Origin: Lithacetigena sp037446255 [NCBI: Coprothermobacterota bacterium]
GTDB lineage: Bacteria; Coprothermobacterota; HKB111
Direction of reading: 5' to 3'
Assembly: GCA_037446255.1 (NCBI GenBank)
Contig: JBBIIY010000009.1
Coordinates: forward strand, 9,386-55,513
Length of the DNA stretch: 46,128 bases
This document shows, one piece after another, positions 21,478-41,020 of this stretch; within the stretch, counting starts at the first letter, position 1, and each line of letters starts with the position of its first letter. Below the pieces are notes generated by a model. It searched no databases and had not been told where the DNA came from. It saw only the letters and a list, made by a program, of their open reading frames with translations. The position numbers and the translations under genes were made by a program.

Positions 21478-22398
21478 TCAATTTCTGCCTTCTATCTCTT
21501 TAATTGTTTTGAAGGTTTTTTTAACAAACCAGGGCCATTCTTTGCCTGAACTATACCACTTTTCTAACCATTCCCGGGTTTGTTTATTAGACACATTACC
21601 TGTCCCTGGTTTCAACAAACCAAACTGATATAAAACATCATTGTTTATGTCAAGTATCTCTTCCGACCTATATTTTTTGGAGATGAGAGAAGCAACTTTG
21701 GTTTCCAAAAACTTATTTTCACTGTGGCTGGTGATAACTATTTCCAGGTTAGCCCTGTTAAAAAATGACAATTCCTCTTTAAAGTTACTACCTACTCCGT
21801 AATCATCAATTACCATCCGGCATTTACATGAACTGTACTTGTTTAGAAAGTATTCACATAGACTAAGATATTTCCTATCAAATAGTTTATTTAAATTCTT
21901 TGGCTTAATTTCTTCAGGGGTTATCTGTAGTACTTTATAAACTAACCCTTCATTCTGAAAACTTTCTATTTGCTGAAAAACTTTAAGCCAGTATTCATCT
22001 GATTGAGCCTTTTTGGAATCTATAGAACTTAAAAATGAAGACAGGTTACCAGCTTTACTATAAGGAAAAGCTACTCCAGTTAAATAGATGCTGCCAAAAA
22101 TTTCTCCTTTTCCGGTCTCATCAAAGCCAATCAGATAATCATAAATTCCAGAGGTTTTCGCGGTAAATAAAGTTTCTATTTCCGATAAACATTTAGACAC
22201 CACGGGGTGGGACGAATTTGATGGAGTGGCATAGAGAGTACCATTATTATAAAAAATATAAGTAGAATCTACTAAAGACAACCTCCATTTTTCCGTTGGG
22301 TTTGTTAAAGGTTTTTCAATTCCACCATTTTTTATTATCAAAGACCATATTTCTTTTTCTTTGTTCTCTGAAACACTCCTCCAGGTTCGACCTTGCAA
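21478..22398 (-). CDS. RNase HIII-like protein (type 2 RNase H fold)
   Basis: A 306-residue protein. After about 88 residues resembling the TBP-like substrate-binding domain of RNase HIII (TYIFYNNGTLYATPS), the catalytic core begins YLIGFDETGKGEIFGSIYL. The Asp-Glu pair is kept, but the usual GxG is altered to GKGE. CRMVIDDYG supplies another acid, and ENKFLETKVASLISKKY matches the helix that carries the last part of the site. It starts with TTG behind an AGGA site, 18 bases after sucD. Its place at the end of a carbon-metabolism operon is odd. It could be an active RNase HIII or a divergent paralogue. Confidence 0.75.
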   Translation of the reverse strand: MQGRTWRSVSENKEKEIWSLIIKNGGIEKPLTNPTEKWRLSLVDSTYIFYNNGTLYATPSNSSHPVVSKCLSEIETLFTAKTSGIYDYLIGFDETGKGEIFGSIYLTGVAFPYSKAGNLSSFLSSIDSKKAQSDEYWLKVFQQIESFQNEGLVYKVLQITPEEIKPKNLNKLFDRKYLSLCEYFLNKYSSCKCRMVIDDYGVGSNFKEELSFFNRANLEIVITSHSENKFLETKVASLISKKYRSEEILDINNDVLYQFGLLKPGTGNVSNKQTREWLEKWYSSGKEWPWFVKKTFKTIKEIEGRN

Positions 22399-22416
22399 TG
22401 TTTTATCCTGAACTCA

Positions 22417-23283
22417 TCATTTTAATAGGTCAGCAATATAGTCAGCAACCTGTGAAGGTATTTCTGCTACCTTAACTCCAGCTTGTTTGAGAGACTCCAC
22501 CTTGCTTTCAAAACCACCTGCTCCACGCTCAATAATTGCTCCAGCATGCCCCATTCTCTTACCAGGAGGTGCGCTTTTTCCTGCAATATAACCTATAACT
22601 GGTTTAGTCATAGACTTTATATAAATAGCAGCTTCTTCCTCCTGCCTTCCACCTATCTCTCCAACCAGAACAACTGCACGCGTTTCATTATCTTTTTCAA
22701 ACAGTCTTAAGATATCAACAAAGCTTAGCCCCACTACCCTATCTCCACCTAAACCCAAACAGGTAGTTTGCCCGATGCCCCTGGTGGATAGGTTGGAAAC
22801 TATTTCGTAGGTAAGTGTACCACTCCTGCTAACTACACCAACTGGACCGGGGGTAAAAATGGAATTTGGAGGTATGCCAATCTTAGCTTGTCCAGCGCTG
22901 CAAATACCAAAAGTATTCGGACCTATTTGAATAACTCCATTTTTTTGGGTATAACCAACAATTTGCAGAGCATCGTGAAGAGGAATGTGTTCGGTAACTA
23001 TTACCAGTAGCTTGATCCCGGCACTAATGGCTTCAAAAGCCGCTTCTTTAGCCAAGGGAGCAGGTACAAAAATAACAGAGGCATCAGCTTGATGTTGTTC
23101 AACTGCTTCAGCAACTGTATCATATACAGTTATACCTTCAATCTCCATCCCTCCCCTGCCTGGGGTAACTCCAGCAACGATATTAGTTCCATAATTCAGC
23201 ATCTCCCTGGTGTGAAAGTTTCCCTGTTTCCCGGTTATTCCCTGTACTACAACCCTGGTATCTTTATTAATCAATATTGCCAT
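22417..23283 (-). CDS. sucD: Succinyl-CoA synthetase alpha subunit
   Basis: A 288-residue CoA-binding subunit of succinate-CoA ligase. VVQGITGKQGNFHTREML is the CoA-binding Rossmann start. IGPNTFGICSAGQAKIG and GPVGVVSRSGTLTYEIV follow. The phosphorylated His lies in GKRMGHAGAIIERGAGG. The reaction is succinate + CoA + NTP to succinyl-CoA, reversible. It follows sucC without a gap. With the fumarate reductase-like pair upstream it extends the operon's C4 chemistry to succinyl-CoA. Confidence 0.96.
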   Translation of the reverse strand: MAILINKDTRVVVQGITGKQGNFHTREMLNYGTNIVAGVTPGRGGMEIEGITVYDTVAEAVEQHQADASVIFVPAPLAKEAAFEAISAGIKLLVIVTEHIPLHDALQIVGYTQKNGVIQIGPNTFGICSAGQAKIGIPPNSIFTPGPVGVVSRSGTLTYEIVSNLSTRGIGQTTCLGLGGDRVVGLSFVDILRLFEKDNETRAVVLVGEIGGRQEEEAAIYIKSMTKPVIGYIAGKSAPPGKRMGHAGAIIERGAGGFESKVESLKQAGVKVAEIPSQVADYIADLLK

Positions 23284-24417
23284 TTAACGACCTCCAAAAC
23301 AGCAAGAAGATGGTTTTGTTAGTGCTACTGCTTTCAAGGCAGCTTTTTCCATGGAATTATATGCTGAAAGGTTGTTCTCAAGAAGAATCTTAATTGCTTC
23401 CTCTTCTCTTGTCCCGGTCAGCCTTATTACCAGAGGAGCACAGAAATCAGTGGTTTTTTTAACTTCTAAAATAGCCAGAGCAACATCGTCACAGCGGGTT
23501 ATGCCACCGAAAATATTAATAAAAATTACTTTTGGTTTGGTGTCGTTCAATAGAGATAAAGCCCTGGCCATAGGTCCAACAGCTGCTCCACCTCCAGCAT
23601 CCAGAAAATTAGCCGGTTTACCACCAAAAATAGCTAATAAATCAAGGGTAGCCATAGTTATTCCCGCACCATTCGCCATAACAGCTATGTCACCATCTAA
23701 CTGGACATAAGAGAGTCCCAATGCTTTTGCTTTTAACTCCCAGCCTTCACCTTCAGCTACGAGGGGTAAATCCTGGTGACGGTAAAGAGCATCGTCATCA
23801 ACATTTAATCTGGCATCAAGTGCTATAAGTGTATCCCCAGATCTCACCAGGGGGTTAATTTCCACCAATTCTGCATCATATTTGCGAAAGAGATTGTACA
23901 TTTTAATGACTAAAGATGAGAACTCGTTCATTAACTCCCCCTGCATTCCCAATTTTCGGGCGATTTCCCTGCCAAGGTAAGGGTACACTCCTACTTCCAT
24001 ATCAATAACTTTCTTTACAATATATTCCTCGGAGACATCTTCTATATTCACACCTCCTTGCGAAGAGGCCAGAATGATAGGTTTTTTTAAGAAATTATCA
24101 ACTGTTATGGAAATATAATATTCCTTATCAAATATTGATTTTTCTTCAACTAACACCTGCCCTACTCTAATTCCTTTTAACTCAGACCCCAGGATTCGCT
24201 TAGATTCATTAATAACCTCTATTTCAGTGTTGGCAAAAGCAATACCACCTGCCTTACCCCTACCTCCGGTTAATACCTGAGATTTTATTGCTACAGGGAA
24301 TCCAATATCTTTAGCAATGGTCAGGGCTTCTTCTGGTGTTTGGGCAACCCCTCCTTTAGGTAGAAGTATTCCTTCAGTTCGGAAAATACTTTTAGCTATA
24401 TATTCATATAACTTCAT
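23284..24417 (-). CDS. sucC: Succinyl-CoA synthetase beta subunit
   Basis: A 377-residue ATP-grasp subunit that binds the nucleotide and forms succinyl phosphate. KLYEYIAKSIFRTEGILLPKG, the lysine-rich IKSQVLTGGRGKAGGI, VEINPLV, LDARLNVDDDAL, GAGITMATLDLL and FINIFGGITRCD are all present. It starts four bases inside the flavoprotein gene (ATGA), showing translational coupling to the fumarate reductase-like subunits. Confidence 0.96.
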   Translation of the reverse strand: MKLYEYIAKSIFRTEGILLPKGGVAQTPEEALTIAKDIGFPVAIKSQVLTGGRGKAGGIAFANTEIEVINESKRILGSELKGIRVGQVLVEEKSIFDKEYYISITVDNFLKKPIILASSQGGVNIEDVSEEYIVKKVIDMEVGVYPYLGREIARKLGMQGELMNEFSSLVIKMYNLFRKYDAELVEINPLVRSGDTLIALDARLNVDDDALYRHQDLPLVAEGEGWELKAKALGLSYVQLDGDIAVMANGAGITMATLDLLAIFGGKPANFLDAGGGAAVGPMARALSLLNDTKPKVIFINIFGGITRCDDVALAILEVKKTTDFCAPLVIRLTGTREEEAIKILLENNLSAYNSMEKAALKAVALTKPSSCCFGGR

Positions 24418-26036
24418 TCCATCCCTCCACCCTGTTTAATATCAGGAGAGTAATCAGGAAGTAATAAAGGTGAAACACATCCTGTTTTCACCTTTGCCAA
24501 TTCCAATTCTTTTTCATACAAACGCAAGTGGTTAAGATTTAAAGATCCAATTTTTATTCCTTTAGATTTCCGGGCAGCAACCGATCCTGCTATTCTGCCA
24601 AAAACCAGGACATCCATCAGTGAATTGCCCATTAACCTGTTTCTACCATGAAGTCCGCCCGATACTTCTCCTGAAGCATATAAATTTGGTATATCAGTTT
24701 CACAAGCTGGATTAATTTCAATTCCACCATTTTGATAATGTAAAGTTGGATAAATAAGGATTGGCTCCTTGGCTATATCAATTCCATACCTCTCATACTG
24801 TCTTACCATGGCGGGAAGTTCTTTGGCTACTGTTCCAGGACCGTGTATAAAATCAATTAAAGGAGAATCAAGCCATACGCCTTTCATTCCAGTGGGGGTG
24901 GTAACTCCTCTGTCTCTATCATAACATTCTCTAATGACTCCCGAAGAAACAACATCCCTGGTTTCCAGGGGGTAGATAAATTGCTCTCCTAGAGCATTAA
25001 CCAGTTGAGCTCCTACTCCTCTTACTTTTTCGGTTACCAGTAATCCTACAATTTGTTCGGGGAAAGCTGCTCCTGTGGGATGAAACTGGGTTGCTTCCAG
25101 AAAAACTAATTTAGCACCTAACCTATAAGCCATTACTAATCCATCTGCTGTTGCTCCATAGTGGTTTGAGGTGGGGAATCCTCCTACGTGTAATCTGCCA
25201 AACCCTCCGGTAGATAAAATAGTAGTTTTAGCTTTTACCACCTGATAAGTTCCTCTTTCCAGATTCATAAGAACTGCACCAGCACATTGACCTTCATCAT
25301 CTGAAAGAAGCTCTACAGCTGGAGCAAACTCTATAACCTTGATCCCCCTGTTAATAACCTCATCTCTCAGGGTTCTCATTATTTCTGCTCCAGTGTAGTC
25401 CCGAGCGAAATGCATCCTCTTTCTACTGGTCCCTCCACCATGAATAGTTGCAAATGTTCCTTCTTTATCTTTATCAAACATACACCCCAGGTTTTCTAAC
25501 CAGGACATTACCAGGGGGGCTTCTTTAACCAATACTTCAACCAGATCAGGGTTATTCTGAAAACCACCACCACCGAGGATATCAAGGTAATGTAACAAAG
25601 GAGAGTCATTATCTTTAGTAGCTGCTTGAATGCCACCCTGAGCCATCATGGTATTGGCATCTCCCAACCTTAACTTAGTAGTTATTATTACCGATGCTCC
25701 CTCAGCTTGAGCCATCAAAGCTGAAGCTGCACCTGCCCCTCCACCTCCAATAATTAATACATCTACCTCGTAATCAGGAGAATTAAGGTTTACCTCCGCT
25801 GGATTTAACCTGCTCGTGGATTCCAATATATTAGCCAACTCGTGAGGAACCCTTGAACCCTTACTGGCACCAACTTTCAAAGCTCTCAGGGTATCCTCCC
25901 GGAAATCAGGGTGAAAACTCTTTAAAAGGCTCTGCTTTTCATCGGGAGATAGTAAGGGGAATTTCTCTTTAGCCCTGACAGACCGCGTTTTTTCTACCAT
26001 TTTCATTGATTCAATCATATTTTCAAGATAACTCAT
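24414..26036 (-). CDS. Fumarate reductase/succinate dehydrogenase-like flavoprotein, soluble type
   Basis: A 540-residue FAD protein of the FrdA/SdhA/L-aspartate oxidase family. The FAD site is DVLIIGGGGAGAASALMA (from about residue 92). The catalytic site is kept: FHPTG, TEKVRGVGAQLVN, LHYQNGGIEI and HGRNRLMGNSLMDVLVFG. The His that carries covalent FAD in membrane enzymes is Asn128 (ANTMMAQGGI), so FAD should be non-covalent. About 90 N-terminal residues precede the FAD domain. No membrane anchor gene is adjacent. The ATG at 26036 is preferred over the TTG at 26039 by spacing to GGGAGG. L-aspartate oxidase is the main alternative, but the iron-sulfur partner and operon favour fumarate/succinate. 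Confidence 0.85.
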   Translation of the reverse strand: MSYLENMIESMKMVEKTRSVRAKEKFPLLSPDEKQSLLKSFHPDFREDTLRALKVGASKGSRVPHELANILESTSRLNPAEVNLNSPDYEVDVLIIGGGGAGAASALMAQAEGASVIITTKLRLGDANTMMAQGGIQAATKDNDSPLLHYLDILGGGGFQNNPDLVEVLVKEAPLVMSWLENLGCMFDKDKEGTFATIHGGGTSRKRMHFARDYTGAEIMRTLRDEVINRGIKVIEFAPAVELLSDDEGQCAGAVLMNLERGTYQVVKAKTTILSTGGFGRLHVGGFPTSNHYGATADGLVMAYRLGAKLVFLEATQFHPTGAAFPEQIVGLLVTEKVRGVGAQLVNALGEQFIYPLETRDVVSSGVIRECYDRDRGVTTPTGMKGVWLDSPLIDFIHGPGTVAKELPAMVRQYERYGIDIAKEPILIYPTLHYQNGGIEINPACETDIPNLYASGEVSGGLHGRNRLMGNSLMDVLVFGRIAGSVAARKSKGIKIGSLNLNHLRLYEKELELAKVKTGCVSPLLLPDYSPDIKQGGGME

Positions 26037-26050
26037 CAATACCTCCCTTA

Positions 26051-26725
26051 CTACTCAATAACCCTGGAGTTATACAGGGATTTAATATCATTAATATCTT
26101 TTTCTTTCATTTCCTGCAATTCAGCATCATATTTCCCAATAACTATCTCTTCTACTCTTCTCGCCAGATGAGATGATTTTGGAGCTATATATTTCCCATA
26201 TAACCTTCTGGATAAAATAGATACATAGTACTGGACTATTTCCGCTGGACACCTGGAAGCACATAATCCACACATTATACAGTCAAAAGAAAGGTCAGCA
26301 ACTTTAGCGATGTCCCCTCTCATGGAGGCTGCCATCATATCCATAACTTTCAGGTTCTGAGGACATACTTTATCGCAGGTACGACACCCAAGACAACGGC
26401 TTAGTTCGGGATATAATTTAACTAAATCTGAAAGTGTAGGTTTAACCTTTTCTATATCATATAACGCTTTATTGGCAGGGTAAAACGGTATCATAGTCAG
26501 GTACATTCCATCTTCAGCTACCATCTGACAGGCTAACCCTACTTTCAATTTATAATCACCTGGTATCCTGTAAACAGTACCGCAAGCTCCGCAGAATCCT
26601 CCCCTACAACCGCATCCCCTGACGAATTTGTATCCAGTAAACTCCATGGCTTTCATTACGGTTAAACCATCAGGAACTTCATAAGGTTTTCCCATGATAT
26701 AAATAGTAATCATTCTTTGATTCAT
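26051..26725 (-). CDS. Fumarate reductase-like iron-sulfur subunit (2Fe-2S plus two 4Fe-4S)
   Basis: A 224-residue electron-transfer protein. Residues 1-70 form a plant-type ferredoxin domain with RGCGCRGGFCGAC and a later C66 (2Fe-2S). Two 4Fe-4S sites follow: CLGCRTCDKVCP (from C111) and CIMCGLCASRCP (from C149). Ordinary FrdB has one 4Fe-4S and one 3Fe-4S site. The present pattern matches the N-terminal part of thiol:fumarate reductase TfrB but lacks its CCG domain. A separate CCG protein, HdrB, is encoded 5 kb upstream in the same operon. It should pass electrons between the flavoprotein and Flox/Hdr partners. Confidence 0.85.
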   Translation of the reverse strand: MNQRMITIYIMGKPYEVPDGLTVMKAMEFTGYKFVRGCGCRGGFCGACGTVYRIPGDYKLKVGLACQMVAEDGMYLTMIPFYPANKALYDIEKVKPTLSDLVKLYPELSRCLGCRTCDKVCPQNLKVMDMMAASMRGDIAKVADLSFDCIMCGLCASRCPAEIVQYYVSILSRRLYGKYIAPKSSHLARRVEEIVIGKYDAELQEMKEKDINDIKSLYNSRVIE

Positions 26726-26737
26726 TCTATCTCCTCC

Positions 26738-27574
26738 TCAATACTCCTTAGGTAATGTTTTTAACTCTTTTAGGGTAAACACTGGTCCATCAAGGCAAAT
26801 GTATTTGTCGCCAATATTGCATCTACCACACTTACCAATACCACATTTCATTTTCATTTCCAGAGTAGTAACCGTATCTTCCTCAGGGAAATTTAAATCT
26901 TTTAAGACATCAAGTGTATATTTAATCATTATCGGTGGTCCGCAGGTGAAAGCTACCGTGTTTTCAGGAGAGGGATTTAACTCTTTAAGAATTTTCGGTA
27001 CCACCCCTACTTTCCCCTGCCAACTATTAGTGGCTAAATCAACAGTTATATGTACTTCAGTGTTTTTCAAGCCTGGCCAGATATTGAATAATTCTTCTTT
27101 AAATACCAGGTCTTCTGGAGTTCTCGCACCATAAATAATTGTAATTTTTCCAAAATCGTCCCGTTTAAGCAATGAGTAGTGAATGAGAGATCTCAAGGGT
27201 GCAAGCCCTATGCCACCGCCAATGAAAAGAAGATTTTGTCCTTTTATTCTTTCCACAGGAAAAGTATTGCCATAAGGACCCCTGAGCCCAACCTTATCTC
27301 CTATACGCAAGGAATGTATATACGAAGTAACTTTACCCATCTTTTTTATACTAAGTTCAAGATAGTTCTCGCCAAAGAAATAAGAGGATATGGAAATGGG
27401 AGCCTCGCCGCTTCCAAAAACCGACAATTCTACAAATTGACCTGGTAGGTGACTGAAGTCTTTTTCTAAAAAAGTCAGGCGAAAAGTTTTAATATCCCCT
27501 GTTTCCTGGATTATTTTTTCAATGGAGGCTAACCTTGGTAGGTAAGGATTTTGCAGATGGTATAGATTATTCAT
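26738..27574 (-). CDS. floxA: FloxA-like NAD(P)H/FAD oxidoreductase subunit
   Basis: A 278-residue ferredoxin-NADP reductase-type flavoprotein. The FAD domain shows DFSHLPGQFVELSVFG and PISISS. The nucleotide domain has LLFIGGGIGLAPLRSLI, IIYGARTPEDLVF and AFTCGPPIMIKYTL. A C-terminal cluster motif, KMKCGIGKCGRCNIG followed by YICLDGP, binds 2Fe-2S as in PyrK and sulfhydrogenase gamma. In Flox-Hdr systems this subunit exchanges electrons with NAD(H). It overlaps floxB by 8 bases. Sulfhydrogenase gamma or AsrB are homologous alternatives, but no hydrogenase or sulfite reductase catalytic gene is here. Confidence 0.85.
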   Translation of the reverse strand: MNNLYHLQNPYLPRLASIEKIIQETGDIKTFRLTFLEKDFSHLPGQFVELSVFGSGEAPISISSYFFGENYLELSIKKMGKVTSYIHSLRIGDKVGLRGPYGNTFPVERIKGQNLLFIGGGIGLAPLRSLIHYSLLKRDDFGKITIIYGARTPEDLVFKEELFNIWPGLKNTEVHITVDLATNSWQGKVGVVPKILKELNPSPENTVAFTCGPPIMIKYTLDVLKDLNFPEEDTVTTLEMKMKCGIGKCGRCNIGDKYICLDGPVFTLKELKTLPKEY

Positions 27575-28610
27575 GGTTTAAAGTTCCAATAACCCTGGTG
27601 ATATCAATATCCACCGGGCAATATTTCAAGCATCGCCCACACCCTACACAAGCAATGCAACCATAACGGTTGACGAAGTAGTTGAGTTTGTGCATAAACC
27701 TTTGTCTGACTCTTTCTTTCCTATCAGGTCTGGGATTGTGACCCGAGGCCATGTTAGTAAAGGAGAAAAACTGGCAGGAATCCCAACATCTGAATCTTCG
27801 GCCTTCATTTTTCGTTAACTCATCAGCAATGTCAAAGCAGTGACAGGTGGAGCAAAGATAGGTGCAAATCCCACATCCTATGCATGTTTCAGCGAGTTCT
27901 TCCCAGGCTGGATGCTCAAATATTTTTTCAACATCTAAAAACACCTCAGCATCTTTCTTATCAAAACCTGCTGAAAAACCTTCCCGTGCTTGAGATTGAA
28001 TTTCTAAAGCCCTAATTATTTCCTCCTCTTCTGCTTTCTCAAAATATTCAGGTAAATCATTGATTAACTGCTGACCCCTCTTGGTGTTAAGAGACACAAG
28101 ATAGTTATTCCCAAGGTCAGTTAAGAATATATCTACCAAAGTATCTTCTCCAGGATTCACTTCCAACGAAGAACAAAAACAGTATATTTGAGGATTAGTA
28201 CATCCCAGACCTATCAACAGGGTATTATTCCTTTTACGTAGATAATAGACATCTTCATTTTTTTCTTTAAACACTTCATCCAATATAGTTATACTTCTGG
28301 AGTCGCAAGGTCTAATCCCGAAAATAATTCTCCTGGAGGTTTCAATATTCTCTTTAATAGACACATCATTTCTATAATTGAAGTTGAACAATGTTTCCTG
28401 TTGAGGAAGAAACAAACCTTTGGGGGGTAGCAGGGTGTTAGTAAATTCAAGAGTTAAATTGCTATTTAACTCGTATCTCTTGAAATCAACTACTCCCTCC
28501 TCTTCGACAGGAACAAATATCTCGTATTCATTATACAGAGTACTTAATAAATTTTGAACCTTTGATTTTTTTAATAGGAAGTAAGATCTCTCAGGATTAT
28601 TTGAATTCAT
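27567..28610 (-). CDS. floxB: FloxB-like 4Fe-4S protein (HydB/AsrA-type)
   Basis: A 347-residue iron-sulfur protein of the sulfhydrogenase beta/AsrA type. The C-terminal third has CIGCGICTYLCSTCHCFDI and CVGCGRCLKYCPVDIDI, two 4Fe-4S sites, with a conserved RFRCWDSCQFFSFT between them. The ATG at 28610, behind GAGGATTCCG, is preferred to the upstream frame start at 28652, which lies over floxC. It sits between FloxA and FloxC and should wire the NAD(H) flavin to the MvhD-like subunit. Confidence 0.85.
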   Translation of the reverse strand: MNSNNPERSYFLLKKSKVQNLLSTLYNEYEIFVPVEEEGVVDFKRYELNSNLTLEFTNTLLPPKGLFLPQQETLFNFNYRNDVSIKENIETSRRIIFGIRPCDSRSITILDEVFKEKNEDVYYLRKRNNTLLIGLGCTNPQIYCFCSSLEVNPGEDTLVDIFLTDLGNNYLVSLNTKRGQQLINDLPEYFEKAEEEEIIRALEIQSQAREGFSAGFDKKDAEVFLDVEKIFEHPAWEELAETCIGCGICTYLCSTCHCFDIADELTKNEGRRFRCWDSCQFFSFTNMASGHNPRPDRKERVRQRFMHKLNYFVNRYGCIACVGCGRCLKYCPVDIDITRVIGTLNHE

Positions 28611-29580: not shown

Positions 29581-29990
29581 GGGCTACTCTCCGGGTTTTT
29601 GGGAAAAGGTTTATCCTGTATTTTTTCCAACTTGCTTATTATATCCTTGACCGATTCGGCAAACTTTCCACCCTCAGCAGCAGATATCCAGTAAAGCTGG
29701 AGCCTTTCAGGATTGATCCCGCTAAATTCCAGTAATCTTTTTAATACCATCAATCTCCTTCGGGTAAAATAATTACCGGTAGAATAGTGACAATCACCTG
29801 GATGGCATCCAGCAACCATTACTCCATCTACACCTTTGGATAAGGCTCTCATGATGAAAGTAGGGTTAATTCTACTAGAACAGGGTATCTTGATAATTCG
29901 GATATTAGCAGGATACTTCAACCTGCTGGTACCAGCTAAATCCGCTCCGGCATAACTACACCATTGACAGCAAAAAGCTACTATTTCCAT
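29577..29990 (-). CDS. floxD: FloxD/MvhD-like 2Fe-2S electron-transfer subunit
   Basis: A 137-residue protein of the MvhD/HdrA-linked delta subunit family. The five cysteines are visible: FCCQWCSYAGADLAG, IKIPCSSR and VAGCHPGDCHY. MvhD docks on HdrA and delivers electrons from an oxidoreductase to the bifurcating flavin. The gene overlaps hdrA by 10 bases, which supports a stable contact. No F420-non-reducing hydrogenase MvhAG is encoded here; the Flox genes replace it. Confidence 0.9.
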   Translation of the reverse strand: MEIVAFCCQWCSYAGADLAGTSRLKYPANIRIIKIPCSSRINPTFIMRALSKGVDGVMVAGCHPGDCHYSTGNYFTRRRLMVLKRLLEFSGINPERLQLYWISAAEGGKFAESVKDIISKLEKIQDKPFPKNPESSP

Positions 29991-31939
29991 AGTAATGCCT
30001 CCAGTTCTGCCATAATCTGCTGGTTGGTATAACCTCTAAGGTCAATGGCTCCACTTCTGCAGGCTACCGTGCAGGAACCGCAACCCTGACAGAGAGCTGA
30101 ATTCACTTTGGCAATTACTTTCCCCCGGTAATTCTCTTTTTCAATCGCTTGATAGGGGCAAACAGTTTCACATGATAAACAACCAGAACATTCATCTTTA
30201 TTAACTATAGAAACCGTTGGTTCAGCCAATACGCTATTTCGTGAAAACAAAGAAAACACTTTAGAAGCAGTTGCGCTTCCCTGGGCTACTGATTCAGCAA
30301 TATCTTTAGGCGCATGACCGCATCCGGCAAGATACACTCCTCGGGTCATACATTCAATTGGTTTTAACTTGGGGTGAGCTTCTTGAATAAAACCATGTTC
30401 ATCTGTAGTGATTTTTAAGATATTAGCGAGTTCCTTCACTCCGTTTGAAGGAACTATCGCGGAGGCTAACACAACCATATCAGCATTAATCTCTATTTTT
30501 TTTCCGCTCAAGGTGTCCATTCCCCAAACAATTAATTTACCATCTTCCTCAAACACTCTGGATACCTGACCACGAAGATAGAGCATCCCTGACTCTTCAA
30601 CGCTTCTGTAGATGAACTCTTCATAACCCTTACCCCCAGCCCTGATATCCATATAAAAAACATAAACCTGCCCATCAGGTACTTTATGTTTATATAATCT
30701 TGCCTGTTTAGCAGTGTACATACAACAAATCTTGGAACAGTAAGGCTTGCCTTTCTCTCTGTCCCTGGACCCAGCACATTGGATGAAAACTATCTCTTTG
30801 GGTATTTTCCCATCGGAAGGGCGTCTGATTACTCCAGAAAAAGGACCTGAAGATGAATTTATACGCTCAAATTGCATACCATCAATAACATCTTTATATT
30901 TTCCATACCCAAATTCAGCTAATTCCGATTTATCTATTAAGTCATAACCTGTGGCTACAATTATTGCGCCTATCTTTTCTTTGACTAATTGGTCCTGTTG
31001 CTGGAAATCTATAGCTTCTTCCGGGCATAGTTTTGCGCACACTCCGCATTTCCCCTGGTTTAGAAAAATACAGCTTTCTTTATTTATGAAAACTTTATAG
31101 GGAACTGCCTGTGGAAAAGCCATATCTATGGATTTTCCTTCTTTCAAGCCGCATTCAAATTCAGGATAAATTTTCTTTGGGCATTTCTCAATGCAAATAG
31201 CACAACCAGTACACTTATTCCAATCCACAAAAGTAGCTTTTCTCCTGATAACTGCTTCAAAATTCCCTACATAACCCTTAACTTCTTCAACTTCACTATA
31301 GGGCATCAATGTTATTCTGGGATGCCGGGCAACTTCGGCAGTTTTAGGAGTAAGGATACACTGGGCGCAATCAAGGGTGGGAAAAGTCTCAGATAATTGG
31401 GTCATATGACCACCGATAAAAGGTCGTTTTTCCACTAATAATACTTCATAACCGGCATCAGCAATATCCAGAGCAGCCTGCATTCCTGCCACTCCAGCTC
31501 CTATAACCATAGCTCTTTTGTTTAGAGGAAAGGATTCGGGGTAGAGAGGTTCATTATGTAGAACTTTTTCTATTGCCATATTTACCAGCTTTATGGCTTT
31601 TCCCGTAGCTTCCTCCCTGTCTTCATGGACCCAGCTGCATTGCTCACGTATATTAGCCATTTCACAAAGATAGGGGTTTATTTCGCACCTGGAGGCTAAT
31701 TCTCTAAAGGTGGTTTCATGCATACCAGGAGAACAGGCTGCTATTACATAACCCTCCAATCCTTTTTCTTTAACTATCTCTTTAATCAGCTTTTGTCCAG
31801 GCTCGGAACAAAGATATTTGTAATCGGTAGAGCATATCACTTGAGGATGGCTGGAAGTTTCTTCTACAACCCGTTTTATATCAACGGTACGGGAAATATT
31901 CAAACCGCACCAACAGACAAATACACCAATATTTCTCAT
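29981..31939 (-). CDS. hdrA: Heterodisulfide reductase subunit A (bifurcating flavoprotein)
   Basis: A 652-residue HdrA. The N-terminal cluster region starts IGVFVCWCGLNIS. The FAD-binding domain is AMVIGAGVAGMQAALDIA, followed by the family cluster motif FPTLDCAQCILTPKTAEV. Ferredoxin-type sites are CTGCAICIEKCP, CGVCAKLCPEEAI, CSGCLSCETVCP and CQGCGSCTVACRSGAI. HdrA carries the flavin that splits electron pairs between ferredoxin and the HdrB disulfide site. All expected cofactor sites appear intact. The ATGA overlap with hdrB shows coupling. Confidence 0.95.
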   Translation of the reverse strand: MRNIGVFVCWCGLNISRTVDIKRVVEETSSHPQVICSTDYKYLCSEPGQKLIKEIVKEKGLEGYVIAACSPGMHETTFRELASRCEINPYLCEMANIREQCSWVHEDREEATGKAIKLVNMAIEKVLHNEPLYPESFPLNKRAMVIGAGVAGMQAALDIADAGYEVLLVEKRPFIGGHMTQLSETFPTLDCAQCILTPKTAEVARHPRITLMPYSEVEEVKGYVGNFEAVIRRKATFVDWNKCTGCAICIEKCPKKIYPEFECGLKEGKSIDMAFPQAVPYKVFINKESCIFLNQGKCGVCAKLCPEEAIDFQQQDQLVKEKIGAIIVATGYDLIDKSELAEFGYGKYKDVIDGMQFERINSSSGPFSGVIRRPSDGKIPKEIVFIQCAGSRDREKGKPYCSKICCMYTAKQARLYKHKVPDGQVYVFYMDIRAGGKGYEEFIYRSVEESGMLYLRGQVSRVFEEDGKLIVWGMDTLSGKKIEINADMVVLASAIVPSNGVKELANILKITTDEHGFIQEAHPKLKPIECMTRGVYLAGCGHAPKDIAESVAQGSATASKVFSLFSRNSVLAEPTVSIVNKDECSGCLSCETVCPYQAIEKENYRGKVIAKVNSALCQGCGSCTVACRSGAIDLRGYTNQQIMAELEALLWK

Positions 31940-32799
31940 TTTAATCGCTCCAATACAGGCAAGGGATTTATCTGGTGTTCTTCAAAATGACAAACATCCA
32001 CTCCCAAGCCAAGCGCTAGAGCTAACAGCTGGGTAAAGTATAAAACTGGAACAGGTTTTGATATATGCCCTGATTTCATCAGCTCTTTTTGCCCAGCCTC
32101 CAGATTATACAGGCATAGAGGACAACTGGTGATTAAAACTTCAATACCTCTCTTGTTAGCTCCCTGTATTATCTTTAATACTGCACTGTTTATAACTTTT
32201 TCTTCTGTTATACCTAAATATGCTCCGCAACATTCAGTTTTATAGGGAAAATCAACTATATCACATCCAAGACTCTGGAGGAAATTTTCAAAGATGGTAG
32301 GGTTTTCCGGGTGGTCAAAAACCAGTTCTTTCTGAGGTCTTAACAGTAAACACCCATAATAAGGAGCTGCCTTTAAACCAGTCAGAGAAGTTTTAACTTT
32401 ACTTTTTAATTCCTCCCATCCTACATCTTTCCTGATAACTTCCAGGAAATGGAGAACTTTTGTGGAACCATCGTACTTTTCTTCCAAATAATTATTTAAC
32501 TTTTCCCTTTTATCAGCATCATTCAGGATAAGATAATTGGTTCTTTTTAAAACCTGATAACAGGCAGAACAAAGAGTAACCAGTTCTTTTCCTTCTTTTT
32601 TTGCTCCCATCAGATTCCTGGTGGGAGATAAAAGGGAGATTAAATCTTCTGACCGTAAAGGATATACAGCTCCACAACAATACCAATCAGGTAGTTCTTC
32701 TAACTCAATTTCCAACTCACGGGCTGTGGAAATAGTTGAATCTCTGAAACTTTGGCTTTGATTATGCAAGGTGCATCCTGGAAAATATGAATATTTCAA
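31936..32799 (-). CDS. hdrB: Heterodisulfide reductase subunit B (CCG protein)
   Basis: A 287-residue protein with two complete CCG cluster sites. The first is C9, C41-C42, C77 and C80. The second is C150, C190-C191, C226 and C229. In characterised HdrB these hold two non-cubane 4Fe-4S clusters that cleave a disulfide. The natural disulfide here is unknown: neither methanogen cofactor genes nor dsrC are in the window. It may act on a protein disulfide or pass electrons to the fumarate reductase-like pair encoded downstream. Confidence 0.94.
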   Translation of the reverse strand: MKYSYFPGCTLHNQSQSFRDSTISTARELEIELEELPDWYCCGAVYPLRSEDLISLLSPTRNLMGAKKEGKELVTLCSACYQVLKRTNYLILNDADKREKLNNYLEEKYDGSTKVLHFLEVIRKDVGWEELKSKVKTSLTGLKAAPYYGCLLLRPQKELVFDHPENPTIFENFLQSLGCDIVDFPYKTECCGAYLGITEEKVINSAVLKIIQGANKRGIEVLITSCPLCLYNLEAGQKELMKSGHISKPVPVLYFTQLLALALGLGVDVCHFEEHQINPLPVLERLK

Positions 32800-32812
32800 C
32801 TATACACCACCT

Positions 32813-33211
32813 TCAGGTTCCTTTTCGCCACAAACTAACCAATGCTTGTTGTGGTAACCGCGTTTTAACTTCATCTGAAAGGACATTGGGGTCAAAAGGC
32901 TGGAAGACATCATTTAAATTATAATACCGAAGAGCTTCCATTATTCTGGCAATGTCAATTGCGCGCGGACAACGCGATAAACAGGTGAAGCAAGAAGTGC
33001 AAAACCAGGGGCTATTCACTTCAAGAGCTTCGTCTATTAAACCAAGTTGAAGCATTCTTACTATCTCATGGGGTGGAACATCCATAAGATTCTCAGAAGG
33101 ACATCCAGCGGAACACTTGCCGCATTGGTAACAGTTTATTATTTTTTGGTTACTTCTTTCCTCAATAGCTTCTCTGAGTTCATAGTTAATTTTTTCAATA
33201 CTTATTTCCAT
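32813..33211 (-). CDS. hdrC: Heterodisulfide reductase subunit C
   Basis: A 132-residue ferredoxin-like subunit with CYQCGKCSAGCPSENLMDVPP and CTSCFTCLSRCPRAIDIARI, two 4Fe-4S sites that link HdrA to HdrB. VPPHEIVRMLQLGL between them is typical of HdrC. It is the first hdr gene after malic enzyme, 20 bases away. Confidence 0.94.
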   Translation of the reverse strand: MEISIEKINYELREAIEERSNQKIINCYQCGKCSAGCPSENLMDVPPHEIVRMLQLGLIDEALEVNSPWFCTSCFTCLSRCPRAIDIARIMEALRYYNLNDVFQPFDPNVLSDEVKTRLPQQALVSLWRKGT

Positions 33212-33231
33212 GCTGATTAAACCAAAAAAGC

Positions 33232-34569
33232 TTATTCAGCGGGAGCTTCTGGAATAAAGCCCTCTTTCATCAGAAGAGCTGTCATATCCTGAGAACCCTT
33301 TATCATCTTCACCGCTTTGTCATAAAGGACTTCCTTACTTAACTCTATTCTATGAAGACCTTGTTCAATAGCTTTAAGGGCCACAGCCACTGCTACTCTG
33401 GGAAACACTTCAGGGTCATCCATGCGGGGTAGAATACAGGTATCAGTTAATCCTTTTTCTTCTGCGAACTTAGATAATTCAAAAGCTGCTGCTAAACACA
33501 TTTCATCACTAATTGTCTTTGCTCGGACATCCAGGGCTCCTCTAAAAATAGCCGGGAATCCGAGGGAATTATTAACCTGGTTGTCAAAATCAGACCTACC
33601 AGTGGATACAACACGAGCACCTGCCTCTTTGGCTTCCCAGGGCCAGATTTCTGGAATAGGGTTGGCACAGGCAAAAACAATGGCATCTTTGGCCATGGTA
33701 GCCACCCACTCTTTTTTAATGACGCCAGGTCCTGGACGAGAAAGACCTACCACTGCATCCATTCCTACCAAAGCTGCAGCAAGATCTCCGGTTCTTCCTT
33801 CTTTATTTGTTTTCAGGCACATTTCCCATTTTTCTTTATAATCTTCCTGTAAATTTTCTCTACCAGGATGCAAAATCCCCTGACTGTCTAACATTATTAT
33901 ATTTCCAGGATCAACTCCAGCCAATATTAAAACCCGTGCAGTACAAATCCCGGAAGCTCCTGCTCCCAGAATTACTACTTTAGCTTGTTTAATATCTTTA
34001 CCAACAAACTTCAAAGCGTTAATTAAACCTGCAACTACTACGGTGGCTGTTCCCTGCTGGTCATCATGCCAGACTGGAATATCCATCTCATTTCTAAGCC
34101 TTTCCAGAATGTAAAAACATTTTGGTTGAGAAATGTCTTCCAGATTGATACCTCCGAAATTAGGTTGTAAGTATTTTACTACCTTGATTATTTCTTCTGG
34201 GTCTTTTGTATCCAGGCAGATAGGAATAGCGTCAACTCCACCAAGATATTTAAATAAAAGTGATTTCCCTTCCATAACGGGCATACCAGCTTCGGGACCG
34301 ATATCACCCAGACCCAAAACCCTGGTCCCATCGGACACCACAGCAATAGTATTAGCCCTGTTAGTATATTCGTATGATAATTCTTTATTGGTTTTAATGG
34401 CTTTACAGGGCTCAGCTACGCCTGGAGTGTACCAGATAGCAAAATCGTCAAAACTCCTGATGGCACACTTAAGGGCAATCTGAATTTTTCCCTGATAAAA
34501 AGGATGCAACTTCATCGCATCCAACGTAGGTTTTTTGGCTTTTGCCAGTAATTCTTCTACCACATCCAT
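33232..34569 (-). CDS. NAD(P)-dependent malic enzyme
   Basis: A 445-residue enzyme interconverting malate and pyruvate plus CO2 with NAD(P)H. Conserved blocks: AIWYTPGVAEPCKAI, VVSDGTRVLGLGDIGPEAGMPVMEGK, the metal-binding IPVWHDDQQGTATVVVAG, the Rossmann start VVILGAGASGICTARVL, VVGLSRPG and FACANPIPE. The length is the short bacterial form without the phosphotransacetylase-like domain. It links the operon's fumarase product, malate, to pyruvate. Cofactor choice cannot be read reliably. Confidence 0.95.
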   Translation of the reverse strand: MDVVEELLAKAKKPTLDAMKLHPFYQGKIQIALKCAIRSFDDFAIWYTPGVAEPCKAIKTNKELSYEYTNRANTIAVVSDGTRVLGLGDIGPEAGMPVMEGKSLLFKYLGGVDAIPICLDTKDPEEIIKVVKYLQPNFGGINLEDISQPKCFYILERLRNEMDIPVWHDDQQGTATVVVAGLINALKFVGKDIKQAKVVILGAGASGICTARVLILAGVDPGNIIMLDSQGILHPGRENLQEDYKEKWEMCLKTNKEGRTGDLAAALVGMDAVVGLSRPGPGVIKKEWVATMAKDAIVFACANPIPEIWPWEAKEAGARVVSTGRSDFDNQVNNSLGFPAIFRGALDVRAKTISDEMCLAAAFELSKFAEEKGLTDTCILPRMDDPEVFPRVAVAVALKAIEQGLHRIELSKEVLYDKAVKMIKGSQDMTALLMKEGFIPEAPAE

Positions 34570-34594
34570 CTTAATATATCCTCCTGTTATGATT

Positions 34595-35146
34595 TTATTT
34601 TTTGTACTTATTTACTCCCTCTTCGTAGAGGTCTCCTCCATAAATATCGTTTATCACTATCGCTGGGAAATCTTCAACTATTAATTCTCTGATGGCTTCA
34701 GGACCTAACTCCTCGTAAGCAATAACTCTTGAGCCCTTAATGGCCTTAGCCAATAATGCTCCAGCACCGCCAATAGCGGCAAAATATACTCCTTTCTCTT
34801 TTACGAGAGATTCTTTCACTTCCTTAGACCTGAAGCCTTTGCCAATCATTCCTTTTAAACCATTTTCCAAAAGTAGAGGTGTGTATGCATCCATTCTTTC
34901 ACTTGTTGTAGGTCCAGCAGAACCGATAGGTTGCCCGGGTTTAGCCGGTGAAGGGCCAACATAATAGACTATCTGACCCTTGATATCAAATGGTAAATTT
35001 TTTCCTTCTTTAATTAAATCAAACAGTTTTTTATGAGCCGCATCGCGAGCTGCATAAATAATACCGGTAATAAATACTTCATCACCAGCTTTTAAAAGTG
35101 AAGCTACCTCATCGGTTAAGGGAGGTGTTATCTTTCGTATTGCCAT
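34595..35146 (-). CDS. Class I fumarase beta subunit (C-terminal domain type)
   Basis: A 183-residue protein matching the beta half of two-subunit iron-sulfur hydro-lyases: ISGI-like FITGIIYAARDAAHKKL, VYYVGPSPAKPGQPIGSAGPTT, RMDAYTPLLLENGLKGMIGKG and VIVNDI-like AIVINDIYGGDLYEE. It forms fumarase with the upstream alpha subunit. L(+)-tartrate dehydratase beta is homologous, but the malic enzyme and fumarate reductase neighbours favour fumarase. Confidence 0.92.
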   Translation of the reverse strand: MAIRKITPPLTDEVASLLKAGDEVFITGIIYAARDAAHKKLFDLIKEGKNLPFDIKGQIVYYVGPSPAKPGQPIGSAGPTTSERMDAYTPLLLENGLKGMIGKGFRSKEVKESLVKEKGVYFAAIGGAGALLAKAIKGSRVIAYEELGPEAIRELIVEDFPAIVINDIYGGDLYEEGVNKYKK

Positions 35147-35161
35147 TATTTTGCCTCCTGA

Positions 35162-36004
35162 TTATAGAATAATTTCTTTATGCCTACAAACATGGCAGTT
35201 AATATTTATAGCTACTGGAAGCGAAGCAATATGAGCAGGAAAAGTTTCCACGCTTACCCATAAAGCAGTAGTCCTGCCTCCCAATCCCTGAGGTCCAATA
35301 CCTGTATTATTAATGCTCTCCAGAAGTTCCTTTTCTAATTTAGCATTGTCAGGGTTGCTGCTATGTTCAAAAATAGGCCTTATTAGTGCTTTTTTGGCTA
35401 AAAGAGCTACTTGCTCAAAAGTTCCACCTATTCCCACTCCTACTACAATAGGGGGGCAGGGGTTTGAACCTGCTTGTTTGACTGCTTCAATCACAAAATT
35501 CTTAACACCTTCAGCACCATCAGATGGTTTCAGCATTTTCAAAGAGCTCATGTTCTCGCCTCCTCCACCCTTAGGAACCAATGTTATTTTAATATTGTCA
35601 CCGGGGACAATTTCGGTATAAATAATTGCTGGAGTGTTGTTGCCGGTGTTCTTACGAATTAAAGGATGGCTTAGCATGGAAGCTCTTAAAAAACCCTCGG
35701 TATAACCCTTTGCCACACCAGCATCAATAGCATCTCTGAGCAAACCATCCACAATATGTACATCCTGACCAACCTCCACAAATACTACTGCTGAGCCAGT
35801 ATCCTGGCAAATGGGTACAGCTTCCTCGCGGGCTATTCGGGCATTTTCAAGTAATTGCTGGAGCACGCTTTTCCCCAGAGGAGATTCTTCTTTAGATATT
35901 GACTCTTCAAAAGACTTTATAACATCTTCACCAAGATAGTAGTTAGCATCCTGGCATAACTTAGCAACTGATTCGGTAATTATTTTTGCACTTATTTCCC
36001 TCAT
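35162..36004 (-). CDS. Class I fumarase alpha subunit (4Fe-4S)
   Basis: A 280-residue iron-sulfur lyase subunit. Cluster cysteines lie in VPICQDTGSAVVF, GSNPCPPIVVGVGIGG and ININCHVCRHKE. SHPLIRKNTGNNTPAIIY and LVPKGGGGENMSSLKML are family motifs. It interconverts malate and fumarate and is oxygen-sensitive, fitting an anaerobe. It is the first gene of the 15-gene operon, with GGAGG 9 bases before the ATG and a strong promoter upstream. Confidence 0.94.
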   Translation of the reverse strand: MREISAKIITESVAKLCQDANYYLGEDVIKSFEESISKEESPLGKSVLQQLLENARIAREEAVPICQDTGSAVVFVEVGQDVHIVDGLLRDAIDAGVAKGYTEGFLRASMLSHPLIRKNTGNNTPAIIYTEIVPGDNIKITLVPKGGGGENMSSLKMLKPSDGAEGVKNFVIEAVKQAGSNPCPPIVVGVGIGGTFEQVALLAKKALIRPIFEHSSNPDNAKLEKELLESINNTGIGPQGLGGRTTALWVSVETFPAHIASLPVAININCHVCRHKEIIL

Positions 36005-37381: not shown

Positions 37382-37382
37382 A

Positions 37383-38288: not shown

Positions 38289-38358
38289 AGGAGGTGATGA
38301 ATAAGTAATAAATAAGTAATATAATATTAGTTGAAAGTAATTTTATAAGGAGGTAGAA

Positions 38359-39435: not shown

Positions 39436-39443
39436 TCCGATCA

Positions 39444-39479
39444 AGGGGGTATCCTCTCGTGGATACCCCCTCTTTTTTT
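39444..39479 (+). terminator. Intrinsic terminator/attenuator after the BMP gene
   Basis: AGGGGGTATCC (39444-39454) and GGATACCCCCT (39461-39471) form an 11-pair stem with a 6-base loop, followed by C and seven T. It lies between the binding-protein gene and the ATPase gene of the same transporter, only 14 bases before the next ATG. Partial read-through is expected. Confidence 0.9.
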
Positions 39480-39492
39480 ATTTGGAGGATTG

Positions 39493-41019: not shown

Positions 41020-41020
41020 G

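What the first reader, a model, noticed from the sequence alone, without database searches (positions are those of the whole stretch)
21478..36004. Complete C4-dicarboxylate route fused in one operon with a FloxABCD-HdrABC electron-bifurcation module
Fifteen genes behind one promoter, mostly overlapping or under 30 bases apart, encode fumarase, malic enzyme, HdrCBA, FloxDCBA, a fumarate reductase-like pair, SucCD and an RNase H-like protein. In known Flox-Hdr systems NADH is oxidised, ferredoxin is reduced and a disulfide takes the high-potential electrons. Here the co-encoded high-potential couple is fumarate/succinate (about +30 mV), and no dsrC or methanogen cofactor gene is present. The inference is a soluble system in which fumarate reduction drives ferredoxin reduction from NADH. 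In reverse, succinate oxidation would be paid for by reduced ferredoxin, as a syntroph would need. I do not know of a described enzyme with this composition.
Basis: partly seen in the sequence, partly recalled or inferred. Interest (0 to 1): 0.9.

Follow-up and report, generated by a model that had tools for sequence, protein, structure and literature searches.

The report
Operon for electron-bifurcating soluble fumarate reductase
A run of fifteen bacterial genes probably makes a soluble enzyme complex that uses NADH to reduce fumarate and saves part of the energy as strongly reduced ferredoxin; such a complex has already been proposed in print for other bacteria, and here it is supported by gene comparisons but not by any experiment.

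Summary
In detail: fifteen minus-strand genes (36004 to 21478), junctions between a 56-base overlap and a 25-base gap, encode fumarase, malic enzyme, HdrCBA, FloxDCBA, a fumarate-reductase-type pair (FrdBA), SucCD and an RNase H-like protein. The window is close to Candidatus Lithacetigenota (FrdA 91% and 89% identical). The FrdA subfamily occurs in Bacillota, Chloroflexota, archaea and others, nearly always with FrdB and often with Hdr genes; complete FloxABCD-HdrA sets lie in six separate parts of its tree. Eleven FrdA-superfamily paralogs outside the subfamily, from the same genomes, have no Hdr nearby. Catalytic residues are kept; aspartate oxidase is excluded. The two nearest genomes lack DsrC, the menaquinone genes searched and Si-type citrate synthase but have RnfC and a KorA-like protein, so reductive use is likelier than syntrophic succinate oxidation. 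Added here: breadth, repeated module exchange, a control, the Lithacetigenota setting. Against: in an even draw from one phylum only 20 of 39 subfamily loci have Hdr nearby.

The parts
35162..36004 (-). fumA: fumarate hydratase alpha subunit (Fe-S type), 280 aa
   Evidence: NCBIfam NF004885 415.8 bits, over cut-off 276
34595..35146 (-). fumB: fumarate hydratase beta subunit, 183 aa
   Evidence: NF005310 268.2 bits over cut-off 238; TIGR00723 over cut-off
33232..34569 (-). mae: malic enzyme, 445 aa
   Evidence: NF009501 319.9 bits over the malic-enzyme part, below that model's cut-off of 1178 for a 764-position protein
32813..33211 (-). hdrC: [4Fe-4S] dicluster relay subunit, 132 aa
   Evidence: TIGR03290 72 bits, below cut-off 160; Fer4 dicluster
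31936..32799 (-). hdrB: subunit with two CCG motifs, 287 aa
   Evidence: TIGR03288 172.4 bits (cut-off 345) and SdhE anchor model NF042965 168.8 bits (cut-off 500); C9 C41 C42 C77 C80 and C150 C190 C191 C226 C229 invariant in 20 of 20 aligned sequences, window included
29981..31939 (-). hdrA: flavin/Fe-S subunit of the HdrA2 kind, 652 aa; K411 aligns with K409 of 5odc_A
   Evidence: NF040770 772.9 bits (cut-off 1100, a 777-position model); 5odc_A 653.7 bits; K411 present in 40 of 40 HdrA matches (at least 50% identity over 420 residues) from FrdA loci, duplicates included
29577..29990 (-). floxD: MvhD/FlpD-type [2Fe-2S] subunit, 137 aa
   Evidence: PF02662 181.9 bits
28597..29580 (-). floxC: Fe-S subunit, 327 aa
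   Evidence: Fer4 dicluster; stands between floxD and floxB in complete sets elsewhere
27567..28652 (-). floxB: HydB/AsrA-like Fe-S subunit, 361 aa (start codon may lie further downstream)
   Evidence: PF17179 113.8 bits; NF040829 213.4 bits, below cut-off 690
26738..27574 (-). floxA: FAD/NAD(P)-binding subunit, 278 aa, the NADH entry
   Evidence: PF00175, PF00970, PF10418; NF006220 238.7 bits, below cut-off 395
26051..26725 (-). frdB-like relay: [2Fe-2S] plus two [4Fe-4S], no CCG domain, 224 aa
   Evidence: invariant C40 C45 C48 C66, C111 C114 C117 C121, C149 C152 C155 C159 in 31 of 31; directly upstream of frdA in 69 of 72 loci with at least 900 bases upstream
24414..26039 (-). frdA-like flavoprotein of a distinct subfamily with a ~90-residue N-terminal extension and no PF02910 match, 541 aa; H320, E337, R340, R361, H434, R468 at the fumarate/succinate site
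   Evidence: PF00890 252.2 bits; these residues in 121 of 121 relatives, 11 of them duplicates; model pLDDT 87.8 matches fumarate reductases
23284..24417 (-). sucC: succinate-CoA ligase beta, 377 aa
   Evidence: TIGR01016 393.2 bits over cut-off
22417..23283 (-). sucD: succinate-CoA ligase alpha, 288 aa
   Evidence: TIGR01019 410 bits over cut-off
21478..22398 (-). divergent RNase HII/HIII-type protein, 306 aa; probably a passenger
   Evidence: PF01351 45.1 bits; TIGR00729 and TIGR00716 below cut-off; among the 80 loci found beside sucD only in L001 and L002

Best explanation
The operon encodes a soluble, flavin-based electron-bifurcating NADH:ferredoxin/fumarate reductase together with its carbon route. 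NADH is oxidised at FloxA; electrons pass through FloxB, FloxC and FloxD to the FAD of HdrA; one electron of each pair goes down to ferredoxin, the other goes through HdrC and HdrB to the FrdB-like relay and the FAD of FrdA, where fumarate becomes succinate. Malic enzyme and fumarase supply fumarate from pyruvate and CO2; SucCD makes succinyl-CoA. In Lithacetigenota the likeliest use is the reductive branch pyruvate-malate-fumarate-succinate-succinyl-CoA-2-oxoglutarate, with the reduced ferredoxin going to a Kor-type enzyme or Rnf. Shown by computation: gene identities, intact ligand and catalytic residues, a gene association that is conserved and has changed partners repeatedly, absence of the tested alternatives in the two nearest draft genomes. 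Inferred: complex formation, electron path, bifurcation, direction.
For: Operon and identities. FrdA subfamily: 232 tblastn-confirmed places, best 80 kept; frdB directly upstream in 69 of 72 loci with enough sequence; an Hdr gene on the same strand in 39 of 45 loci with 7 kb or more upstream and in 60 of all 80; complete FloxABCD+HdrA in 8 of 80, and also in L192, L193, L194, L197, L198. L056 has fumA, fumB, mae, hdrCBA, floxDCBA, frdBA in the window's order; L073 has the same set rearranged. On a tree of 71 chosen rows, loci with floxA or floxB need 7 gains or losses, at least 6 forced by starred branches, and complete sets lie in six separate parts. Control: 0 of 11 out-of-subfamily paralogs in the same genomes have hdr, flox or frdB matches near. 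The TfrB model, one protein in methanogens, matches FrdB (positions 19-163) and HdrB (263-484) in separate parts, weakly and below its cut-off. HdrA K411 40 of 40, HdrB cysteines 20 of 20, FrdA catalytic residues 121 of 121. DsrC 0 of 10 genomes, MqnA-type 0 of 10, MenD over cut-off 0 of 10. G001 and G002: no mutase, no PF00285 citrate synthase; RnfC and a KorA-like protein over cut-off. Redox arithmetic with about +30 mV for fumarate and -320 mV for NADH: 2 NADH + fumarate + ferredoxin is about -48 kJ/mol with ferredoxin at -420 mV and -33 at -500 mV (ferredoxin values recalled).
Against: No activity, complex or expression data for this organism. In an even draw from one phylum 20 of 39 fetched subfamily places have Hdr genes within about 9 kb, and 10 of the 28 not already among the 80; of these 28, 6 of 7 above 61% identity and 4 of 21 at or below it, some with short flanks. 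Even in genomes with Flox sets, single members stand without Hdr (L079, L121). Some members sit beside NapC/NirT-type cytochromes or a cytochrome b561-FeS protein, so FrdBA can evidently work with other donors. HdrB keeps both CCG motifs, so a disulfide substrate is not excluded. In the Riftia symbiont tfrAB is told to be the exception to the shared expression pattern of its Hdr-Flx cluster (PMC11636981). The FrdB model gave only weak, low-TM matches. The window's genome is not held; G001 and G002 are drafts without a stated completeness.
Confidence: 0.6

Rival explanations
1. HdrB reduces a still unknown disulfide, and FrdBA uses the thiols as a split thiol:fumarate reductase; the two units are coupled by a diffusible or protein thiol rather than by direct contact.
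For: Both CCG motifs of HdrB invariant in 20 of 20; TfrA is the best NCBIfam match of FrdA, 368.8 bits; in loci of Ammonifex, Desulfovirgula, Desulfofundulus and relatives HdrBC without HdrA sits with FrdBA.
Against: No DsrC in 10 of 10 genomes; the TfrA score is about half the cut-off of 718; no thiol-carrier gene was named in the operon; the SdhE anchor of 8-methylmenaquinol:fumarate reductases has the same HdrB-like build (168.8 bits) and needs no disulfide (recalled).
Confidence: 0.15
2. The complex runs backwards: succinate oxidation is paid for by reduced ferredoxin (confurcation), as the first reader proposed for a syntroph.
For: A Dethiobacter cluster carries methylmalonyl-CoA mutase (764 bits), a B12-binding subunit, epimerase, SucCD, fumarase, malic enzyme, FrdBA, HdrBCA and FloxDCBA together (L073); bifurcating enzymes are in principle reversible (recalled).
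Against: No mutase in G001, G002; no PF00285 citrate synthase there, so 2-oxoglutarate would have to come another way and the reductive branch would give it (a Re-type enzyme was not tested); redox arithmetic favours reduction by 33-48 kJ/mol under standard conditions.
Confidence: 0.13
3. Co-transcription only: Flox-Hdr serves another acceptor and FrdBA takes electrons from ferredoxin or another carrier.
For: About half of the subfamily places in an even draw lack local Hdr genes (20 of 39 have them); other donors stand beside FrdBA elsewhere; tfrAB differs in expression from its cluster in the Riftia symbiont.
Against: Flox association changed at least six times on the tree yet recurs with the same set in different orders; 0 of 11 in the paralog control.
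Confidence: 0.1
4. The flavoprotein is not a fumarate reductase or succinate dehydrogenase (for example an L-aspartate oxidase or another alkene reductase).
For: Superfamily matches to NadB (283 bits, below cut-off); a glycine where E. coli FrdA has a phenylalanine in the alignment (its place near the substrate is recalled); Asn at the place of the FAD-binding His (role recalled).
Against: Catalytic residues 121 of 121; H200/G201, not Glu, at the NadB-specific place in either alignment; no NadA in G001 and G002, while three genomes have a separate 31-37% paralog directly beside nadA; neighbours are C4-dicarboxylate genes.
Confidence: 0.02

Closest known systems
'Succinate operon' of Pseudoclostridium thermosuccinogenes (PMC7282089, passages read; [quoted passage not shown]
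   Same: Fumarase, Flx-Hdr complex (seven locus tags by my count), fumarate reductase (two) in one operon; the same coupling is assumed there.
   Different: No malic enzyme or SucCD named in that operon, a hypothetical protein instead; sequences not compared here; there it serves succinate formation from sugar.
tfrAB - flxABCD-hdrABC - korABCD clusters of tubeworm symbionts and Thioflavicoccus mobilis (PMC6315080, PMC11636981, passages read)
   Same: Fumarate reductase and 2-oxoglutarate:ferredoxin oxidoreductase interspersed with Flx-Hdr; a shared complex was suggested.
   Different: Called TfrAB there; whole reverse TCA cycle; tfrAB expressed unlike the rest in Riftia symbionts; sequences not compared here.
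FlxABCD-HdrABC of Desulfovibrio (Ramos et al. 2015, seen as citation only)
   Same: All seven subunits.
   Different: DsrC interacts with the complex there (PMC10504309 passage); here no DsrC was found in related genomes and FrdBA is co-encoded.
Thiol:fumarate reductase TfrAB of methanogens (described in a PMC11223495 passage)
   Same: Flavoprotein plus [2Fe-2S]/two [4Fe-4S] relay plus a thiol-oxidising (HdrB-like) part.
   Different: TfrB is one protein; FrdA is far below the TfrA cut-off.
Soluble five-subunit NADH-dependent fumarate reductase of Hydrogenobacter thermophilus (recalled; paper not held)
   Same: Soluble, NADH-dependent, multi-subunit (recalled).
   Different: Genes scattered (recalled); not compared here.

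Membership tests
FlxABCD-HdrABC (Flox-Hdr) complex | four Flox and three Hdr subunits co-encoded | tested here: met
FlxABCD-HdrABC (Flox-Hdr) complex | NAD(P)H-binding FAD subunit and MvhD-type link | tested here: met
   PF00175/PF00970/PF10418 in FloxA, PF02662 in FloxD
FlxABCD-HdrABC (Flox-Hdr) complex | HdrA lysine at the bifurcating flavin (role recalled) | tested here: met
   K411 aligned with K409 of 5odc_A; 40 of 40
FlxABCD-HdrABC (Flox-Hdr) complex | DsrC as redox partner (Desulfovibrio type) | tested here: inconclusive
   0 of 10 related genomes, but the window's own genome is not held
FlxABCD-HdrABC (Flox-Hdr) complex | electron bifurcation in vitro | not testable with these tools
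   needs purified enzyme
Fumarate reductase / succinate dehydrogenase flavoprotein | catalytic His/Glu/Arg/Arg/His/Arg set (roles recalled) | tested here: met
   H320 E337 R340 R361 H434 R468 in the window and 121 of 121 relatives
Fumarate reductase / succinate dehydrogenase flavoprotein | fold | tested here: met
   best Foldseek match 1kf6_A, E 8.3e-34; flavocytochrome c fumarate reductase 1d4c_B Z 39.8 (2.0 A over 387), E. coli FrdA 1kf6_A Z 36.3 (3.7 A over 427)
Complex II type (quinone-linked) fumarate reductase / succinate dehydrogenase | C-terminal PF02910 domain, His for covalent FAD, [3Fe-4S] in subunit B, membrane anchor | tested here: not met
   no PF02910 match; N129 in 121 of 121; a second four-Cys motif instead of the [3Fe-4S] pattern; no anchor named in the operon
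Thiol:fumarate reductase (TfrAB) | TfrA equivalog score | tested here: not met
   368.8 bits, cut-off 718
Thiol:fumarate reductase (TfrAB) | TfrB fused relay + CCG part | tested here: not met
   separate FrdB and HdrB genes
L-aspartate oxidase (NadB) | active-site Glu in the REGxH motif (recalled) and a nadA partner | tested here: not met
   H200/G201 at that place; no NadA in G001, G002
Pseudoclostridium-type bifurcating fumarate reductase operon | fumarase + Flx-Hdr genes + two fumarate reductase genes in one operon | tested here: met
   gene set as told in PMC7282089 and in the window
Pseudoclostridium-type bifurcating fumarate reductase operon | sequence kinship of the fumarate reductase subunits | not tested

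The most novel reading that the evidence does not exclude
FrdBA plus HdrBC is a widespread plug-in terminal unit that makes fumarate the high-potential acceptor of soluble HdrA-type electron bifurcation in bacteria and archaea, with exchangeable input modules (FloxABCD for NADH; a long HdrA with MvhD and a 370-residue Fe-S protein, often with korAB; HdrBC alone), and in Lithacetigenota, where no menaquinone genes were found, it powers the reductive branch to 2-oxoglutarate.
Probability: 0.45. Interest if true: 0.75.

Novelty: new member of a known kind. Interest (0 to 1): 0.5.

Why it matters
If true, fumarate reduction in organisms without quinones conserves energy as reduced ferredoxin instead of a membrane gradient, which changes the energy budget of reductive-branch carbon assimilation, of succinate-forming fermenters and possibly of propionate oxidisers. 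The recurrent, exchangeable gene modules give many independent test systems.

Tried and rejected
L-aspartate oxidase: rejected. DsrC as hidden disulfide partner: not found in 10 of 10 related genomes. Classical propionate oxidation for this organism: no methylmalonyl-CoA mutase in G001 or G002. 'One promoter': consensus scan uninformative. Fold search with the FrdB model: weak matches to complex I-like and other oxidoreductase proteins, query TM-score at most 0.31 in the 50 rows shown; nothing concluded. A literature search for 'bifurcating fumarate reductase' and five variants found 0 papers in the held library, although the idea is in print under other words. The main text of the paper describing Ca. 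Lithacetigenota (PMC9751293, term search and one passage) has no occurrence of fumarate, succinate, Flox or Hdr. A chance explanation of the neighbourhood was rejected by the paralog control. A strict HdrBC-FrdBA partnership for the whole subfamily was rejected: in the even draw many members, chiefly those at or below about 61% identity, have no Hdr nearby, while among the 80 best loci several at 60-61% do have it.

Rows dropped and limits: L046 was left out of alignment A1 because its frame holds a stop, and A1 used 37 of the 80 loci. The tree used 71 chosen rows: the window, L001, all 16 loci with floxA or floxB, 18 randomly sampled long-HdrA loci, all 5 HdrABC and 4 HdrA loci, the first 9 HdrBC and first 14 Hdr-less loci, 3 NadB-type outgroups, after removing 11 duplicates and unlabelled loci. 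16 of 121 loci had too little flank for a label. The 121 loci include those 11 duplicates. Two subfamily places of G007 were not re-fetched among 41. In the control four weak partial superfamily matches (L107-L110) were not fetched, one contig is 4.4 kb and some flanks are short; the eleven come from six of the ten genomes. Labels rest on tblastn matches with E up to 1e-8 on the strand of frdA, not on curated gene calls.

Full report
What is there. The operon is real and complete: fifteen genes on the minus strand, 36004 to 21478, with junctions between a 56-base overlap and a 25-base gap. Family searches name fumarase alpha and beta, malic enzyme, HdrC, HdrB, HdrA, an MvhD-type FloxD, FloxC, FloxB, FloxA, a [2Fe-2S]/two-[4Fe-4S] relay, a fumarate-reductase-type flavoprotein, SucC, SucD and an RNase HII/HIII-type protein. 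A single promoter is not shown. The window's genome is not held, but its FrdA is 91% and 89% identical to contigs of Candidatus Lithacetigena glycinireducens and Candidatus Psychracetigena formicireducens, so it comes from or near Candidatus Lithacetigenota, named from serpentinite-hosted systems (PMC9751293, one passage).

The flavoprotein. FrdA has a roughly 90-residue N-terminal extension, no PF02910 match and an AlphaFold2 model of good confidence (pLDDT 87.8, pTM 0.90) whose best matches are E. coli fumarate reductase (Foldseek) and flavocytochrome c fumarate reductases (Z 39.8, 2.0 A over 387 residues); aspartate oxidases also match, lower (Z about 32). Aligned with 121 relatives (11 of them duplicates) it keeps H320, E337, R340, R361, H434 and R468 in 121 of 121, the positions of the catalytic residues of fumarate reductase (roles recalled). 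The Glu typical of L-aspartate oxidase (recalled) is not there (H200/G201). In three of ten related genomes a separate 31-37% paralog sits directly beside nadA, and the two Lithacetigenota genomes have no NadA and one match to the TfrA model. Aspartate oxidase is excluded.

The relay and the Hdr side. FrdB keeps twelve cysteines for one [2Fe-2S] and two [4Fe-4S] clusters in 31 of 31 sequences, without the [3Fe-4S] pattern of complex II and without a CCG domain; its kinship to known FrdB is weak by sequence and its model (pLDDT 82.1, pTM 0.57) found no close fold, so the name rests mostly on its place beside FrdA. HdrB keeps both CCG motifs in 20 of 20. HdrA is close to methanogen HdrA (653.7 bits to 5odc_A), and the lysine aligned with K409 of that structure is present in 40 of 40 HdrA matches from FrdA loci (its role at the bifurcating flavin is recalled). 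The TfrB model of methanogens weakly matches window FrdB in its first third and window HdrB in its second half (30.6 and 34.7 bits), that is, in methanogens the two are one protein.

Conservation. A scan of the genome collection with FrdA gave 232 confirmed places, of which the tool keeps 80. frdB is directly upstream in 69 of 72 loci with enough sequence; an Hdr gene lies on the same strand in 39 of 45 loci with at least 7 kb upstream and in 60 of all 80; complete FloxABCD+HdrA sets are in 8 of 80. Orders vary: L056 has fumA, fumB, mae, hdrCBA, floxDCBA, frdBA as in the window; L073 has sucCD, mutase, B12 subunit, epimerase, fumAB, mae, frdBA, hdrBCA, floxDCBA; L053 and L057 are rearranged again. 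Of 121 loci, 48 carry matches to a long HdrA or to a 370-residue Fe-S protein without floxA or floxB, and 19 of these 48 also have a korA match; 13 have HdrB/HdrC without HdrA on that strand (several from Ammonifex, Desulfovirgula and Desulfofundulus; L069 has an hdrA on the other strand; L058 ends just after hdrC). On a tree of 71 chosen rows the floxA/floxB label needs 7 changes, at least 6 forced by starred branches: gains or losses cannot be told apart, but the NADH module has joined or left FrdBA repeatedly, and complete sets lie in six separate parts of the tree.

Control and counter-evidence. Eleven superfamily paralogs outside the subfamily (26-37% identity to window FrdA) from six of the ten genomes were looked at with their surroundings: 0 of 11 have hdr, flox or frdB matches nearby, although one contig is only 4.4 kb and some flanks are short. 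Against the idea: in an even draw from the phylum of G007, 39 of 398 genomes hold the subfamily, and of the 39 places fetched 20 have Hdr genes within about 9 kb; of the 28 not already among the 80, 10 do, namely 6 of 7 above 61% identity and 4 of 21 at or below it. L079 and L121, in genomes that also have Flox sets, stand without Hdr. Some members sit beside NapC/NirT-type cytochromes, a cytochrome b561-FeS protein with aconitase, pyruvate carboxylase or acetyl-CoA synthetase. FrdBA is therefore not tied to Hdr in the whole subfamily. The subfamily was in 21 of 400 genomes of the phylum of G008 and, at over 900 bits, in 2 of 9 of the phylum of G002.

Physiology. In G001 and G002 (Lithacetigenota) there is no match to DsrC, methylmalonyl-CoA mutase, PF00285 citrate synthase (a Re-type enzyme was not tested), the MqnA-type family PF02621 or MenD; RnfC and a 2-oxoacid:acceptor oxidoreductase alpha subunit of the KorA kind are present over cut-off. 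These are drafts without stated completeness. The simplest reading is a reductive branch from pyruvate to 2-oxoglutarate with a soluble, energy-saving fumarate reductase. Standard redox arithmetic gives about -48 to -33 kJ/mol for 2 NADH + fumarate + ferredoxin, depending on the ferredoxin potential.

What is known. PMC7282089 (passages read) describes a 'succinate operon' in P. [quoted passage not shown] it assumes that fumarate reductase is linked to ferredoxin reduction, 'as proposed previously', citing the 2019 preprint, which is not held. PMC6315080 (passages) and PMC11636981 (passages) report tfrAB, korABCD and flxABCD-hdrABC in one cluster; the first suggests a complex, the second finds shared expression for the cluster except tfrAB. 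So the window is a new member of a kind already proposed; what these calls add is breadth, repeated module exchange, a same-genome control, exclusion of aspartate oxidase and a Lithacetigenota setting. I did not compare the window with those published sequences.

Noticed in passing
L073:1699-18214: Dethiobacter sp. SURF_39: one cluster holds SucCD, methylmalonyl-CoA mutase, epimerase, fumarase, malic enzyme, FrdBA, HdrBCA and FloxDCBA, a candidate for propionate or succinate metabolism by electron con- or bifurcation. Its floxA falls into two reading frames, cause not looked into.
   Followed up: partly
L022:4359-16572 and similar Bacillota loci: A ~1050-residue HdrA with two FAD/Fe-S parts, MvhD and a ~370-residue Fe-S protein without an NCBIfam match stand before FrdBA, followed by korAB-type genes and SucCD: a half reverse TCA cycle with its own electron module.
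   Followed up: partly
L191:5363-10632, L205:11376-11795: In Candidatus Frackibacter (L191 repeats L023) and a relative the same FrdBA pair stands beside NapC/NirT-type cytochrome c genes, in L191 also FMN-binding/Fe-S genes, instead of Hdr genes, suggesting a membrane-fed version.
   Followed up: partly
window 21478-22398: A divergent RNase HII/HIII-type protein ends the operon, also in L001 and L002, although the window has what looks like an ordinary RNase HII at 5295-5840 (recognised by eye); reason unknown.
   Followed up: no
window 36491-43010: Plus-strand cluster of a ribokinase-like protein (by eye), nucleoside hydrolase and a BMP/PnrA-type ABC transporter: nucleoside uptake and use.
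   Followed up: no
window 18284-18661: Acyl carrier protein-like gene with a ~40-residue N-terminal extension before the PP-binding domain.
   Followed up: no
window 43019-44662: Two pseudopilin-like proteins with N-terminal methylation-type starts; one of the two matches PF07963.
   Followed up: no
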